A DNA stretch of 64,000 nucleotides from Bradyrhizobium sp. WBAH42 (GTDB lineage Bacteria; Pseudomonadota; Alphaproteobacteria; Rhizobiales; Xanthobacteraceae). Position 1 is the first letter of the stretch. Each line of letters begins with the position of its first letter. Position numbers and translations under genes: made by a program. The notes below the pieces were generated by a model. The model had not been told where the DNA came from. It saw nothing but the letters and a program-made list of their open reading frames with translations, and made no database searches. The DNA is taken from positions 7,201,001 to 7,265,000 of the forward strand of contig NZ_CP036533.1 of assembly GCF_024585265.1 (NCBI RefSeq), written 5' to 3'. Shown piece after piece: positions 24,644 through 30,081 of this stretch.

Positions 24644-24671
24644 TTGACAAGCTTGGGGTCGCCCGTATTGT
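24644..24671 (+). promoter_or_regulatory. sigma-70-type promoter of the ACP-ligase operon
   Basis: A perfect TTGACA (24644-24649) and TATTGT (24666-24671) are separated by 16 bases; transcription would start near 24678, 20 bases before the ACP start codon. It is the clearest housekeeping-type promoter I found in the window. Confidence 0.6.
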
Positions 24672-24697
24672 CGTTCCCATTGTTTCTGGGAAATGAC

Positions 24698-24952
24698 ATG
24701 ACACGCGAGCAGATTTCGGATTTCTGCGTTACCGCGCTGGCCAATATCCTGCGCATCTCGAGGGATCGGGTCGACACCGGCACCAAATTCAACCGCCTCG
24801 GTCTCGATTCGGCGATGCTGGTCTACCTGATGATGGAGCTCGAGGAGAAGCTCGACATCGAACTGTCGACCGACGACTTTTACGACCATCCGACCGTTGA
24901 GGCCTTGTCCCGGTTTCTTGCCGACAAGCGCGCGATCCGACCGGCCGCCTGA
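24698..24952 (+). CDS. acyl carrier protein
   Basis: An 84-residue acidic carrier protein. The phosphopantetheine serine is Ser38 in LGLDSAML (a DSA variant of the common DSL), followed by MMELEEKLDIELSTDDFYDHPTV, the helix III region. It is not the fatty-acid-synthase AcpP, whose sequence and fab neighbours differ. It lies 24 bases before the acyl-AMP ligase, its likely loading partner, behind a clear promoter at 24644. It would carry an activated acyl (or possibly aminoacyl) group to the membrane enzymes encoded by the converging operon. Confidence 0.88.
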   Translation: MTREQISDFCVTALANILRISRDRVDTGTKFNRLGLDSAMLVYLMMELEEKLDIELSTDDFYDHPTVEALSRFLADKRAIRPAA

Positions 24953-24976
24953 CACGGCCTGAACCGGCGCAATCCG

Positions 24977-26677
24977 ATGGACACTCCCCGCTCGCTCGTG
25001 GCGCTCCTGGCCCGGCGCGCGGCGGAGCAGGCCAATGACCGCGCCTATGTCTTCGTCTCCGACCGCGGGACTGAAGAAGCTGCCCTTACCTTCCGCCAGT
25101 TGCGCGATTGCGCAAGTGCGCTCGCGGCGCGCCTGACCGCGGTCGCGCGCCCTGGCGACCGCGCCATCCTGGTATTTCCACCCGGTCTCGAATTTCTGGT
25201 GGCGTTCTTCGGCTGCCTGATGGCCGGCATCATCGCCGTGCCGATGATGATGCCGCGGCGAAACGGTGCGCGCGATGCCAGCGCCGCAATTCTCGCCAAC
25301 TGTACGCCAGCGGTGGCGCTGACCAGTTCGGCCCTCTCGCTTCGCGGCGATCTGCAAACGCGCTTCGCACACGAGAACGTCCGATGGATCGAGGTCGATC
25401 TCGGTCCGGCGACCCTGGCACCGGTCGCGCTGGCGGATCCGGCGGCGGATGACATCGCCTTCCTGCAATACACCTCCGGCTCGACCTCCGAGCCGAAGGG
25501 GGTGATGGTCAGCCACGCCAATCTGCTCGCAAATCTCGAGATGATCCGGATCGCGCTCGGCAACACCAGGCGATCGACCTACGTCAATTGGGTGCCGCTC
25601 TACCACGATATGGGGCTGATCCTGAACGCGCTGCAGACGCTCTATGTCGGGGCGACCTGCGTGCTGATGGCGCCGAACGCGTTCATGCAGCGGCCGCTCG
25701 GATGGCTGCGCGCGATCTCGCACTATCGCGCCGAGGTGGCGTGCAGCCCCAATTTCGGCTTCGACCTCTGCGTAAGCCGCCACCGCGCCGACCAGATGGA
25801 CGGCATCGACCTGTCCTCGCTGAGGATCGCCCTGAACGGCGCCGAGCCGGTGCGCGCAGAAACCATCGAGCGGTTCGCCGCGACCTTCGCGCCGCATGGC
25901 TTCGATCCGCGCGCGATGTATCCGGCCTACGGCATGGCGGAAGCGACGCTGCTCATTTCAGGGGGAACGCGCGGCGGCGGTCATCTGACGCGTCGCGTCA
26001 GTCGCGCGGCGCTTCAGGCGCATAGAGCAGAGACGGCCTCGGAAGCTGACGATGCGCAGATCGTGGTCGGCTGCGGGCGCGCGCTCGAGGGTGAGCAGAT
26101 CGCCATCGTCGATCCCGGGAAATGCACACGCCTGCCCCCCGACTGCGTCGGAGAGATCTGGGTCAGCGGCGCCAACATCGCCGGCGCCTATTGGCGCAAC
26201 GATGACGCGACGAACGAGCTGCTCAACGCGGAGATCGCCGGCGAGCACGGCGCATGGCTGCGCACCGGCGATCTCGGCTTCCTCGATGCAAGCGGCGAGC
26301 TGTTCGTCAGCGGCCGGATCAAGGACCTCATCATCATCCGCGGCATCAACCATTATCCGCAGGACATCGAGCGCACGGTGCAGTCGCTGGACGAGGGCTT
26401 GCGCGCAAACTGCGGCGCGGCATTCTCGGTGCCGGACGAGGGCGGTGAAGAAACGCTCGTCATCGTGCAGGAGGTGGAGCGCACGGCTCGTCACAAGATC
26501 GACAGGGACGAGATCAAGGACCGGATCCGAGAGTCCATTGCCGACTGTCACGAATTATCCGCGCGCCACATTGCGCTGATCCGGCCCGGCGCCCTGCCGA
26601 AAACCACCAGCGGAAAGATCCAGCGCAGGCTGGCGCGCAAGCTCTGGCTCGATGCGGCCTTCGACGAAATCGGCTGA
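24977..26677 (+). CDS. fatty-acyl-AMP ligase (AMP-binding enzyme)
   Basis: A 566-residue adenylating enzyme predicted to convert a fatty acid plus ATP to acyl-AMP and load it on the adjacent ACP. Core motifs: P-loop YTSGSTSEPKGV (residues 165-176), NWVPLYHDMG, YGMAEATL, the LRTGDLGFL hinge and C-terminal catalytic Lys in TTSGKIQRR (~547). The AVP-PRRN region and overall pattern resemble FAALs rather than CoA ligases or DltA-type amino-acid ligases; the distinction needs structural comparison. Its stop lies five bases from that of the converging SGNH gene. Confidence 0.85.
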   Translation: MDTPRSLVALLARRAAEQANDRAYVFVSDRGTEEAALTFRQLRDCASALAARLTAVARPGDRAILVFPPGLEFLVAFFGCLMAGIIAVPMMMPRRNGARDASAAILANCTPAVALTSSALSLRGDLQTRFAHENVRWIEVDLGPATLAPVALADPAADDIAFLQYTSGSTSEPKGVMVSHANLLANLEMIRIALGNTRRSTYVNWVPLYHDMGLILNALQTLYVGATCVLMAPNAFMQRPLGWLRAISHYRAEVACSPNFGFDLCVSRHRADQMDGIDLSSLRIALNGAEPVRAETIERFAATFAPHGFDPRAMYPAYGMAEATLLISGGTRGGGHLTRRVSRAALQAHRAETASEADDAQIVVGCGRALEGEQIAIVDPGKCTRLPPDCVGEIWVSGANIAGAYWRNDDATNELLNAEIAGEHGAWLRTGDLGFLDASGELFVSGRIKDLIIIRGINHYPQDIERTVQSLDEGLRANCGAAFSVPDEGGEETLVIVQEVERTARHKIDRDEIKDRIRESIADCHELSARHIALIRPGALPKTTSGKIQRRLARKLWLDAAFDEIG

Positions 26678-26682
26678 CCTGC

Positions 26683-27693
26683 TCAGAAATCGATTCTCGC
26701 TTTCTCGCCGTCGCGCAGGCTCGCGACAATCCCCTGCTCGATCTTGCGCGCCAGCACCGGGCGGTAGTGGATATAGTCCACGAAACTGGCGCGATCGCGC
26801 GTGAGCTCGTTGTCGACGCGATAGCTGACGAAGTTGCTGCGCGGCCGCCCGGCCACGACCTGTGCGAGCGCGGCATCGCAGGCGTTGCGCTCCAGCTCAG
26901 CTTGCGTGCCGGGCTTTGCCACGGTGGCAGCGAAGGTCGGCGGCACGATGATGACGACGGGCACGTCGACCGGCAATTTGCGGACGACGTCCTTGAGGGT
27001 CGCGATCTCGGGGAACACCGCTCGCGCCTCCGCAGAGGCCACGGGCGCGGGGTCTCTCGGAGCATTGGTCTCCTTGAATTGGCCGGGCGGCCAGATGTCC
27101 TCGTAGCTGACAAAGCCGTCACGGTTCATGCGCGGTCGCAGGCCCAGCCCGATGCCGATGCGTTGGAAGACCTGCTCGATCGCCTGCCAGGAAATCAGCC
27201 GCACCGCATAGGTGACCACGCTTGCGTCATAGAGCCAGTAGGGGAACGGAACGCCCTCCTCCTTCGGCCGGGCATGCACGCACCAGCCGGGATCGGCGGC
27301 GATGACCAGCGCGCCGACCTTCCGGTGTTTGCGCAGGAAGAAATCGAGCACGGCGAGCTGCTCGCGTGGGCTCGCACCGGTCATGTAGAGCTGGACGAAG
27401 CGGAATTCGCTCGCGCGGGACAATTCCGCCGGCTGGATCAATTGCCCGGTCGAATTGCCGAGGATGACGGAGTCGAAGCTCGCATCGCGTGCGCGGCTCG
27501 CTGCCGTGATTTGCGTCAGACGATTGTCAACCCCCTCGATGCCCAGCAGGCCGAGCTTGCCGCTGTCATAGGGATCGACCGCGACCATCAGTGCGACCAC
27601 CAACAAAGCGGCGCCCGAGAGCGTGCCGAGGCACGCCAGCAGGCTCCGTCCCCAGCCGGGATCGGTCTCAGAACTTGAAGTAGACGAATTCAT
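26683..27693 (-). CDS. membrane-anchored SGNH-hydrolase-like protein
   Basis: A 336-residue protein with one N-terminal membrane helix (about residues 17-39) and an extracytoplasmic domain. The SGNH features are a nucleophile in ILGNSTGQ (Ser81) and a C-terminal Asp306/His309 pair in DYIHY, as in AlgX/AlgJ, DltD-like and other O-acylation accessory proteins. It overlaps the 3' end of the MBOAT gene by 26 bases, so the two are tightly coupled. Inferred role: transfer of, or specificity for, the acyl group moved by the MBOAT. The ribosome site is weak; the start could be the GTG at 27708. Confidence 0.72.
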   Translation of the reverse strand: MNSSTSSSETDPGWGRSLLACLGTLSGAALLVVALMVAVDPYDSGKLGLLGIEGVDNRLTQITAASRARDASFDSVILGNSTGQLIQPAELSRASEFRFVQLYMTGASPREQLAVLDFFLRKHRKVGALVIAADPGWCVHARPKEEGVPFPYWLYDASVVTYAVRLISWQAIEQVFQRIGIGLGLRPRMNRDGFVSYEDIWPPGQFKETNAPRDPAPVASAEARAVFPEIATLKDVVRKLPVDVPVVIIVPPTFAATVAKPGTQAELERNACDAALAQVVAGRPRSNFVSYRVDNELTRDRASFVDYIHYRPVLARKIEQGIVASLRDGEKARIDF

Positions 27694-29050
27694 GCAGATC
27701 CCGACCACCCATGTGGAGCAGCAATGCGAACAATCCGATGCCGAGCAGACCGGCGAGCCACGGTTTGGGACGGCGCGTGAGCATCGCGACGATGTCCTGG
27801 CTCGCCGGCAGCAGGAAAGCGAACAGCGGCGCTGCGATCAGCGGCCATAGATGCTTGCCGCGCTCGAGCGGCAGCGGTGAGATCAGTCCCGAAAAGACAT
27901 GCCAGGCCGCCTCCAACGATCCGGCGCGAAAGATCACGCCGGTCGCCAGCACGAACAAGACGGTGAGCGCCCAGCCGAGCCATGACGGAAACTCCGGCCC
28001 ATAGCGGCGCCACAGCGCGCAGGCCACCAGCGCGAAGCCATGCAGCACGCCCCACAGCACGAAGGTCCAGCTCGCGCCGTGCCAGAGGCCGCACAGCGCC
28101 ATCGTGATCATCATCGCGCCGAAGAACTGGACCGGCAAGAAGCGGCGCGGCAACAGGCGCAGATTGACCAGGGGATAGAAGACATAGTCGCGCAGGAACA
28201 ACATCAGCGTGATGTGCCAGCGCTGCCAGAAATCCTGGATATTGGTCGAGCGCAACGGCGCATTGAAATTGTAGGGCAGCTGCACGCCGAACAAGCGGCC
28301 GAGGCCGATCGCGATGTCCGAATAGCCGGAGAAATCGAACAGGATCTGGAACGAAAAGCAGAAGGCGAGCCAGGCGTCGCCGCTTCGCAACGGTCCGCTT
28401 GCCGCCTGCGCATAGATGGGATCGAGCAGATGCGCGAGGCCGTCGGCGATGACGACCTTCTCGAACAAGCCGAACGCGATGAAGCACATGGCGATGCAGA
28501 ATTGCCGCTGCCAGCCCGGCACGTAGACCTGCCGGCCGAACTGATGCATCACCTCCGACCAGCGCGCCAGCGGGCCCGCGATCGCCTGCGGAAAGAAGGC
28601 GATGTAGAGCGCGTAACGGTCGAGCGCATAGAGCGGCGCCTTGCCGCGCTTCAGATCGACCAGATACATGATGTGGTGAAAAGTGAAGAAGGAGATCCCG
28701 AGCGGCAGCCCGATGTCGAGTGCCGGAAACTTCGTATCCAGCACGAGTGCAAGATTGGCGAGCAGGAAATTGGCGTATTTGAACAGCGCCAGAACCGCGA
28801 GATCGAGCACCATCACCAGCGTCAGCACCGCCGGCCATTTCACCCGTCCGTAGGCCACCGAAGCGAGCCAGTTGATCGTGATGGAGGCGATCAGGAGCAG
28901 GATGAACGATGGGCTGCCCCAGGCATAGAAGGCGAGCGACAGCGCGACCTGCACGCCGATCCGCAGATTCGGATAAGGGTCTGCCAGGCGGTAGATCAGC
29001 AAGGCCGCAGGCAGGAAGACCAGGAGAAAGGGATAGTCGTTGAAGAGCAT
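27668..29050 (-). CDS. MBOAT-family membrane O-acyltransferase
   Basis: A 460-residue integral membrane protein of the AlgI/DltB type with about ten to twelve helices. The invariant motifs FWQRWHITL and GLWHGASW (catalytic His) are present, preceded by FFTFHHIMYLVD and YFPQAIAGPLAR-like signatures. Family members take an acyl group from a carrier and move it across the membrane to an envelope polymer or lipid. It sits between a desaturase and an SGNH gene and faces the ACP-ligase operon. Confidence 0.92.
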   Translation of the reverse strand: MLFNDYPFLLVFLPAALLIYRLADPYPNLRIGVQVALSLAFYAWGSPSFILLLIASITINWLASVAYGRVKWPAVLTLVMVLDLAVLALFKYANFLLANLALVLDTKFPALDIGLPLGISFFTFHHIMYLVDLKRGKAPLYALDRYALYIAFFPQAIAGPLARWSEVMHQFGRQVYVPGWQRQFCIAMCFIAFGLFEKVVIADGLAHLLDPIYAQAASGPLRSGDAWLAFCFSFQILFDFSGYSDIAIGLGRLFGVQLPYNFNAPLRSTNIQDFWQRWHITLMLFLRDYVFYPLVNLRLLPRRFLPVQFFGAMMITMALCGLWHGASWTFVLWGVLHGFALVACALWRRYGPEFPSWLGWALTVLFVLATGVIFRAGSLEAAWHVFSGLISPLPLERGKHLWPLIAAPLFAFLLPASQDIVAMLTRRPKPWLAGLLGIGLFALLLHMGGRDLHEFVYFKF

Positions 29051-29097
29051 CGGATCAAAGCTGCGCCATCACCGGCCCTCGCGCCGGCCGGTGATGC

Positions 29098-30081
29098 TCA
29101 GCCCGCCTCCAGATCGGGGGCGGCATCGCCCGGCTGCCGCTGCATGCGCCGAGCGATCTTTTCCTCGCTCGGCACCTTGACGTCCCAGGCGAGCCCGAGC
29201 GCTTCCAGCGCGCGGATGAAGATGAAGCCGGGATCGAACTCGAACCAGCGCAGGCCGAAGGCCGCCGAATACGGGAAGGCGTGATGGTTGTTGTGCCAGC
29301 CCTCGCCCCAGGCGAGCCAGGCCATCACGCCGAGATTGCGGCTGTTGTCGTCGCGGGTGACGAAGGGCTGTGCGCCGAAGCTGTGCATGACCGAGTTGAT
29401 GGCAGACATGGTCTGCTCGACCACGAACATCCGCACCACGCCGCCCCAGAGAAAGCCGGTCAGCGCACCCCACAGGCTCATCGTCGCCAAGCCGCCGATC
29501 AGCGCGGGCAGCAGCAGGCCAAGGCCGACCCAGGTGTAGTAATGGCTGTTGATCGCAACCAGCCTGCGGTCCGCCATCAGGTCCGGCACGTAGTGGGCGA
29601 CGTTGGGATAATCATGCGCGATCATCCAGGTCAGGTGCGCGTGCAGGAAGCCGCGCAGGCGGCCGAGCAGACCCTCGCCATGCAGTCGCGGCGAGTGCAG
29701 GTCGCCGTCATGATCGGACAGCTCGTGATGCCGCCGGTGCATCGCGGCCCAGGACAGCATGGGGCCGCGGCCGGCCATCGAGCCCATGACGATCAGGATC
29801 GCGCTCATCGTCGTGGAGGTCGCGAAGGCGCGGTGCGTGAACAGGCGGTGATAGCCGACGGTGAGGCCGAGACCCGTGATCAGCCAGAAGCCGAACAACA
29901 GTCCGAGCTCCATCGCGCCGATCGGGCCGACAATCAACAGGCCCAGCGCAACCAGCGTGCCGATGAACGGCAGCACGTCGAAAATAATGAAATGCCGCCG
30001 CTGCATCCTGTGGAAGTGCCGGCTGCGGATGATGCGGTGATCGCGTTTCTGTTGCACGGTCGGGCTTCCAGGTCGGCTCAT
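29098..30081 (-). CDS. membrane fatty-acyl (delta-9-type) desaturase
   Basis: A 327-residue di-iron membrane desaturase with the three histidine boxes HRLFTH, HRRHH and HNNHH in the expected order, and four hydrophobic segments. Such enzymes insert a double bond into acyl-CoA, acyl-ACP or phospholipid chains. ATG 30081 is the likely start; the frame extends upstream without homology. It ends 48 bases before the MBOAT gene on the same strand and may supply or modify the acyl chain used there, though a general membrane-lipid role is equally possible. Confidence 0.85.
   Translation of the reverse strand: MSRPGSPTVQQKRDHRIIRSRHFHRMQRRHFIIFDVLPFIGTLVALGLLIVGPIGAMELGLLFGFWLITGLGLTVGYHRLFTHRAFATSTTMSAILIVMGSMAGRGPMLSWAAMHRRHHELSDHDGDLHSPRLHGEGLLGRLRGFLHAHLTWMIAHDYPNVAHYVPDLMADRRLVAINSHYYTWVGLGLLLPALIGGLATMSLWGALTGFLWGGVVRMFVVEQTMSAINSVMHSFGAQPFVTRDDNSRNLGVMAWLAWGEGWHNNHHAFPYSAAFGLRWFEFDPGFIFIRALEALGLAWDVKVPSEEKIARRMQRQPGDAAPDLEAG

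What the first reader, a model, noticed from the sequence alone, without database searches (positions are those of the whole stretch)
24644..30081. Dlt-like four-part acyl-transfer locus built around a fatty-acyl-AMP ligase
Seen: an ACP (DSA serine) and an acyl-AMP ligase behind a clear promoter (TTGACA-16-TATTGT) face, five bases apart, an operon of desaturase, MBOAT acyltransferase and a one-helix SGNH protein whose gene overlaps the MBOAT by 26 bases. Known: dlt systems use ligase DltA, carrier DltC, MBOAT DltB and membrane-bound DltD to D-alanylate teichoic acids. Inferred: this is the same logic with a fatty-acyl ligase, moving an activated (perhaps unsaturated) acyl chain via ACP and MBOAT to an envelope glycan or lipid. 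I know of no described alphaproteobacterial system with exactly this set.
Basis: partly seen in the sequence, partly recalled or inferred. Interest (0 to 1): 0.78.

Follow-up and report, generated by a model that had tools for sequence, protein, structure and literature searches.

The report
Carrier-fed fatty-acyl envelope-modification gene cassette
Some Bradyrhizobium soil bacteria carry a five-gene cassette that probably loads a fatty acid onto a carrier protein, passes it through the membrane and attaches it to something on the cell surface, and the gene that likely chooses the target has been exchanged between strains while its neighbours stayed put.

Summary
ACP and FAAL (24698-26677, +) face SGNH, MBOAT and desaturase (26683-30081, -) across 5 bases, behind a conserved promoter. 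They behave as one inherited unit: FAAL, MBOAT, SGNH and desaturase orthologues occur in the same 5 of 36 same-genus genomes; all five genes keep one order in 29 of 39 FAAL loci from a genome scan; a distant MAG keeps four without the desaturase; 7 of 16 cassette-less genomes show the empty site. Best reading: a Dlt-like carrier route (FAAL, ACP, MBOAT) with a PatA/PatB-like output (FxYxxF shuttle on the MBOAT itself, then SGNH) that puts a fatty, perhaps desaturated, acyl group on an outward-facing acceptor. New: the SGNH gene was exchanged by recombination (A/B identity 49%, neighbours 84-94%); the only other near-fixed A/B differences are 8 in the MBOAT, 7 of them just before the shuttle. 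Against uniqueness: MBOATs beside a ligase and a carrier exist elsewhere with other ligase classes, and keep a loop lost here, so that loop does not prove carrier use. No chemistry is shown; acyl chain and acceptor are unknown. New variant of a known kind.

The parts
24644..24671 (+). promoter TTGACA-16-TATTGT
   Evidence: -35 kept in 26 of 26, -10 in 24 of 26 aligned loci, L102 included
24698..24952 (+). acyl carrier protein, 84 aa, Ser38 (codon 24809-24811)
   Evidence: PF00550 1e-15; [LI]DSAM in 32 of 32 cassette loci
24977..26677 (+). fatty acyl-AMP ligase, 566 aa
   Evidence: PF00501 and PF23024; FAAL subfamily models 336-452 bits, below their cut-offs; best PDB sequences 7r7f/7r7e/7r7g, 3kxw, FadD32 group; FAAL-type A5-A7 spacing
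26683..27693 (-). membrane-anchored SGNH acyltransferase; Ser81, Asp306, His309
27668..29050 (-). MBOAT acyltransferase, 460 aa, His324
27671..27688 (-). MBOAT C-terminal FVYFKF (FxYxxF acyl-shuttle motif, Tyr457)
   Evidence: FxYxxF in 32 of 32 cassette MBOATs; motif as described in PMC12148441; low confidence in the model
28142..28192 (-). MBOAT stretch RDYVFYPLVNLRLLPRR, at the place of the DltC-docking helix HC of DltB
   Evidence: alignment to DltB, DltB-DltC contacts; GG[NS] turn absent in 32 of 32
27668..27693 (-). 26-base MBOAT/SGNH overlap
29098..30081 (-). membrane fatty-acid desaturase, three His boxes
   Evidence: PF00487; His boxes in 30 of 30 cassette desaturases longer than 100 aa; 44-45% identical to those of L182/L183, 28-34% to six same-genus desaturases

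Best explanation
A carrier-fed envelope acylation cassette. The FAAL adenylates a free fatty acid and loads it on the phosphopantetheine of the dedicated ACP. The desaturase, where present, most likely acts on the acyl-ACP. The MBOAT takes the acyl group from acyl-ACP at the cytoplasmic face and passes it to Tyr457 of its own C-terminal FVYFKF tail. The tail hands it to Ser81 of the membrane-anchored SGNH protein, which esterifies an outward-facing acceptor, most likely a strain-variable surface glycan. Shown by sequence, predicted fold and comparative genomics: the components, their motifs, their co-inheritance and the exchange of the SGNH gene. Inferred: every chemical step, the acyl chain, the desaturase substrate and the acceptor.
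Against: No biochemistry. ACP, FAAL and MBOAT scores are below NCBIfam cut-offs. Loss of the GG[NS] turn is not diagnostic of carrier use: MBOATs beside a ligase and a carrier in L256, L197 and L198 keep it, and L193 and L245 lack it with no carrier seen. L102 has no desaturase match. The halves lie on opposite strands and co-regulation is not shown. Of the DltB docking residues I306 corresponds to N296, and by offset from the Ser the ACP has Tyr43 where DltC has Glu40. SGNH fold scores are tied with hydrolases, so transferase action is inferred from context.
Confidence: 0.68

Rival explanations
1. Two neighbours, not one system: FAAL, ACP and desaturase make an unsaturated acyl-ACP for another pathway (as JamABC units do), while MBOAT-SGNH is an ordinary acyl-CoA-fed O-acetyltransferase that happens to lie beside them.
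For: JamA/JamB/JamC are a known FAAL/desaturase/ACP trio (PMC8406139, passages). DES-ACP-FAAL without MBOAT exists (L182/L183). MBOAT-SGNH pairs without an orthologous FAAL occur in other Alphaproteobacteria.
Against: All-or-none presence in the same 5 of 36 genomes; 29 of 39 scanned loci keep all five genes; L102 keeps both halves in another neighbourhood and without the desaturase; the MBOAT turn is changed in 32 of 32 cassette members and in few others.
Confidence: 0.2
2. Same machine, but the acceptor is a lipid (lipid A, hopanoid, ornithine lipid) rather than a polysaccharide.
For: Bradyrhizobium makes unusual lipid A with very-long-chain acyls and hopanoid (recalled, no call). The neighbours scanned (ABC permease, L,D-transpeptidase, GDPD) include no glycan-synthesis gene.
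Against: The SGNH domain resembles PatB, OatA and DltD, which modify polymers (PMC12148441, passages), and it was exchanged between strains, as expected for a variable acceptor.
Confidence: 0.3
3. A true Dlt system that carries D-alanine or another amino acid.
For: Same four functional parts; DltB is the closest solved fold.
Against: FAAL models score 336-452 bits against 162 for amino-acid adenylation; FAAL-type spacing; the shuttle is fused to the MBOAT.
Confidence: 0.03

Closest known systems
Dlt teichoic-acid D-alanylation (DltABCDX)
   Same: ligase + dedicated carrier + MBOAT + membrane-anchored SGNH; MBOAT fold nearest to DltB
   Different: FAAL in place of DltA; shuttle motif on the MBOAT in place of DltX; Gram-negative host; extra desaturase
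PatA/PatB-type MBOAT-SGNH O-acetyltransferases
   Same: FxYxxF on C-terminal helices beyond the DltB core; PatB-like SGNH partner with TM anchor
   Different: the locus has its own carrier and ligase; [quoted passage not shown]
JamABC alkyne cassette (FAAL, desaturase, ACP)
   Same: same three enzyme classes (PMC8406139, passages; the review PMC11837247, passages, names the ACP differently)
   Different: output here is MBOAT-SGNH; alkyne formation and relation to JamB were not tested
Ligase-carrier-MBOAT neighbourhoods L256 and L197/L198 in other proteobacteria
   Same: AMP ligase and small carrier beside an MBOAT with FxYxxF tail; SGNH-profile match in L197 and L198
   Different: ligase is amino-acid/DltA-like (L256) or acetate-CoA-ligase-like (L197, L198); the MBOAT keeps GG[NS]R; the fourth protein of L256 has no family match

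Membership tests
Dlt system | D-alanine-type adenylation ligase DltA | tested here: not met
   FAAL models far above amino-acid adenylation models; FAAL-type spacing
Dlt system | dedicated carrier protein in the locus | tested here: met
   PF00550 ACP with conserved Ser
Dlt system | DltB-fold MBOAT | tested here: met
Dlt system | shuttle motif on a separate microprotein DltX, not on the MBOAT | tested here: not met
   FxYxxF is the MBOAT C-terminus in 32 of 32; no separate search for a DltX gene was made
Dlt system | teichoic-acid acceptor | not testable with these tools
   no chemistry available
PatA/PatB-type MBOAT-SGNH | MBOAT C-terminal FxYxxF on helices absent from DltB | tested here: met
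   helices 402-413, 417-424 and 430-447 and the tail 455-460 lie beyond the DltB-aligned part 1-384; the tail itself is modelled at pLDDT under 50
PatA/PatB-type MBOAT-SGNH | membrane-anchored SGNH partner with Ser-Asp-His | tested here: met
PatA/PatB-type MBOAT-SGNH | no carrier protein in the system, acyl-CoA donor | tested here: not met
   ACP and ligase are part of the inherited unit; the donor itself is not testable here
FAAL | FAAL-specific insertion | tested here: met
   A5-A7 spacing 107-109 in 3 cassette FAALs, 95-109 in 16 other FAAL frames, 75-88 in 10 other AMP ligases of the own genome (10 of 30 held loci passed the motif filter and gave a value)
FAAL | loads fatty acid on ACP, not CoA | not testable with these tools
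   no biochemistry
JamABC | FAAL + desaturase + ACP together | tested here: met
JamABC | desaturase of the JamB clade, alkyne product | not tested
   no JamB sequence was compared

The most novel reading that the evidence does not exclude
A third architecture of transmembrane acyl transfer: a Dlt-type carrier route (FAAL-ACP) feeds a PatA-type MBOAT with its own Tyr shuttle and puts long, unsaturated acyl chains on surface glycans, and strains retarget the chemistry by swapping only the SGNH gene together with the end of the last MBOAT helix that meets it, while the fatty-acyl supply stays constant.
Probability: 0.4. Interest if true: 0.78.

Novelty: new variant of a known kind. Interest (0 to 1): 0.58.

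Why it matters
The MBOAT-SGNH pathways described in the papers seen here move acetyl from CoA or D-alanine from a carrier. A fatty-acyl version would mean that bacteria can graft lipid chains onto surface polymers outside the membrane. The joint change of SGNH and a 12-residue stretch of the MBOAT tail marks, from natural recombination, where partner or acceptor specificity may sit; that can be tested by swaps in harmless laboratory rhizobia. It would also qualify the statement that, among such pathways, only Dlt uses a carrier.

Tried and rejected
Loop signature as a rule: I first took loss of the GG[NS] turn as a mark of carrier use (absent in 32 of 32 cassette MBOATs; present in 32 of 33 other distinct MBOATs in which one search found the loop, of 37; in 13 of 14 further distinct ones, the other being GGG). 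L256, L197 and L198 have a ligase and a carrier beside MBOATs that keep it, and L193 and L245 lack it with no carrier seen. So it is only a mark of this lineage. My ACP profile, built from cassettes, missed the carriers of L256, L197 and L198, so 'no ACP nearby' is weak; Pfam PF00550 over 16 chosen genomes put an ACP beside the pair in one, G386, and none on the contig of L251.

SGNH by sequence: no PDB match even with a profile; settled by fold. Compositional island: none, GC 62-68%. The Foldseek 'pdb' search did not run; the VIA re-alignments were used. FAAL pocket, ACP-MBOAT and MBOAT-SGNH complexes: not modelled. Paper searches for this set listed nothing that describes it (the last two showed 12 of 267 and 15 of 19); one search added nothing. 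One search had an offset error for N-termini and was replaced. Groups A, B and E were named after seeing identities, so the AU tests are post hoc, and the SGNH tree carries a long-branch warning (L102 with group B). In one search (quick trees, many weak forks) the well-supported branches alone force only 2 changes of B on FAAL, desaturase and YkuD, and 1 on each ABC gene, so more than one move of the B allele is likely, not proven.
Full report
WHAT IS THERE. The window lies at 7,201,001-7,265,000 of an 8.29 Mb single-contig genome, Bradyrhizobium by its nearest named SGNH relatives. ACP (24698-24952) and FAAL (24977-26677) read rightward; SGNH, MBOAT and desaturase (26683-30081) read leftward, with 5 bases between the converging genes and a 26-base MBOAT/SGNH overlap.

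ONE INHERITED UNIT. In 60 relatives (36 of the same genus), orthologues of SGNH (48% identity or more, full length), FAAL (79% or more), MBOAT (85% or more) and desaturase (87% or more) occur in exactly the same five genomes; the next best FAAL, MBOAT and desaturase matches are at most 40, 46 and 38% identical. The five loci have one gene order, ACP included. A scan of one genome for each of 84,980 species with two FAAL peptide patterns, so of limited reach, found 39 loci. In 29 all five genes stand in the same order (L090 is cut in the desaturase by its contig end). In a 30th, L102, an alphaproteobacterial MAG, the four-gene core is there (50-59% identity) without a desaturase match and with other neighbours: by eye, an ABC exporter upstream and a solute-binding protein between the halves. 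The other 9, from planctomycetes and others, have a 21-43% FAAL and no MBOAT or SGNH match. The left flank (ABC transporter, L,D-transpeptidase) was found in 28 of the 29 and the GDPD on the right in 20 of 29, not always directly adjacent. Of 16 same-genus genomes that have the GDPD but not the cassette, 7 show the L,D-transpeptidase directly beside it (about 60-300 bases apart; only 1.5 kb was viewed): the empty site.

TWO OLDER MODULES. In a sample of 337 genomes of the class, the SGNH profile matched 17 (own included) at E 1e-20 and the FAAL profile 23 at 1e-100. I fetched 12 SGNH loci, of 12 of the 16 other genomes: the MBOAT is adjacent in 11 (the twelfth starts at a contig end), and none has an orthologous FAAL nearby. 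The nearest pair found is L251 (MBOAT 460 bits, SGNH 266 bits, from a phylum sample of 349 genomes). Conversely, in L182 and L183 a desaturase 44-45% identical to ours (six same-genus desaturases: 28-34%) is followed by ACP and FAAL (in L182 with a CMAS-type methyltransferase, an acyl-CoA dehydrogenase and a hydratase-like protein), with no MBOAT match. So the desaturase seems to belong with FAAL and ACP, in line with JamABC, where FAAL, desaturase and ACP form a unit (PMC8406139, passages).

DONOR SIDE. In DltB the carrier DltC docks on helix HC, residues Met302, Val305, Ile306, Met309 and Lys312, plus Arg317 (PMC11035591, passage); I placed these in the PDB sequence by matching letters. The cassette MBOAT aligns there without a gap from 302 to 312, as RDYVFYPLVNLRLLPRR. 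All 32 cassette MBOATs lack the GG[NS] turn that 32 of 33 other MBOATs have there, L251 among the further ones that have it. This fits a change of donor but is no proof: MBOATs beside a ligase and a carrier in L256 (ligase amino-acid/DltA-like; carrier by size and place only) and in L197 and L198 (ligase acetate-CoA-ligase-like) keep the turn. These loci also show that MBOATs with a fused shuttle beside a carrier and a ligase are not unique to this cassette.

ACCEPTOR SIDE. Cassettes fall into SGNH types A (17, with the window), B (7) and E (7, elkanii-like loci and two MAGs), plus L102. Between A and B mean identity is ACP 94, FAAL 84, MBOAT 87, desaturase 89, but SGNH 49%; between A and the five elkanii-like loci it is 74, 73, 65, 76 and 61% (three duplicate rows still in). 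In four A/B pairs DNA identity in 150-base bins is mostly 75-94% (single bins down to 66%) outside the SGNH gene and mostly 53-64% within it. The SGNH tree joins A with E (100/99), the MBOAT tree joins A with B (100/99.9); each rejects the other grouping (p 0.035 and 0.00015, post hoc). B is one clade in the SGNH and MBOAT trees but scattered on quick trees of FAAL, desaturase and three flanking genes (4-6 changes; well-supported branches alone force 1-2). Near-fixed A/B differences: SGNH 72, MBOAT 8, FAAL, ACP and desaturase 0; none of 500 random splits reaches 72 or 8. Seven of the 8 MBOAT sites are residues 440-451, the end of the last helix and the linker to the shuttle. In the published PatAB model the SGNH anchor contacts that last helix of PatA, among others (PMC12148441, section 9). 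So SGNH travels with the part of the MBOAT that it should touch, by function or by mere linkage, while the fatty-acyl supply is kept. I read this as exchange of acceptor specificity; that is inference.

VERDICT. No step of the chemistry is shown. Searches of the open PMC library (listings only, some capped) listed no description of the set.

Noticed in passing
L256:5905-10638 (-): Operon in another proteobacterial class: DltA/amino-acid-adenylation-like ligase, 81-aa carrier-like protein without a family hit, MBOAT with FLYFQF tail, 403-aa protein with an N-terminal hydrophobic stretch and no family hit.
   Followed up: partly
L198:7422-12138 and L197:7422-13441: MBOAT-SGNH pair facing an ACP-like gene and an acetate-CoA-ligase-like gene: the same converging layout with another ligase class.
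   Followed up: partly
L182:6557-13106 (and L183): Desaturase, ACP, CMAS-type methyltransferase, FAAL, acyl-CoA dehydrogenase and a hydratase-like protein in a row: looks like a fatty-acyl-ACP remodelling pathway. L183 was checked for DES, ACP and FAAL only.
   Followed up: partly
L030-L034: Five same-genus genomes without the cassette have a 39-40% FAAL domain within open frames of about 3,300 codons, as in lipopeptide or polyketide synthases.
   Followed up: no
L081: A record named Frankia sp. RB7 carries a Bradyrhizobium-type cassette and flanks (79-95% identity): probably misnamed or contaminated.
   Followed up: no
L181:8881-11003: FAAL with the best score after the own one in the class sample (700 bits), followed by an ACP near a contig end; whether an MBOAT follows is unknown.
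   Followed up: no
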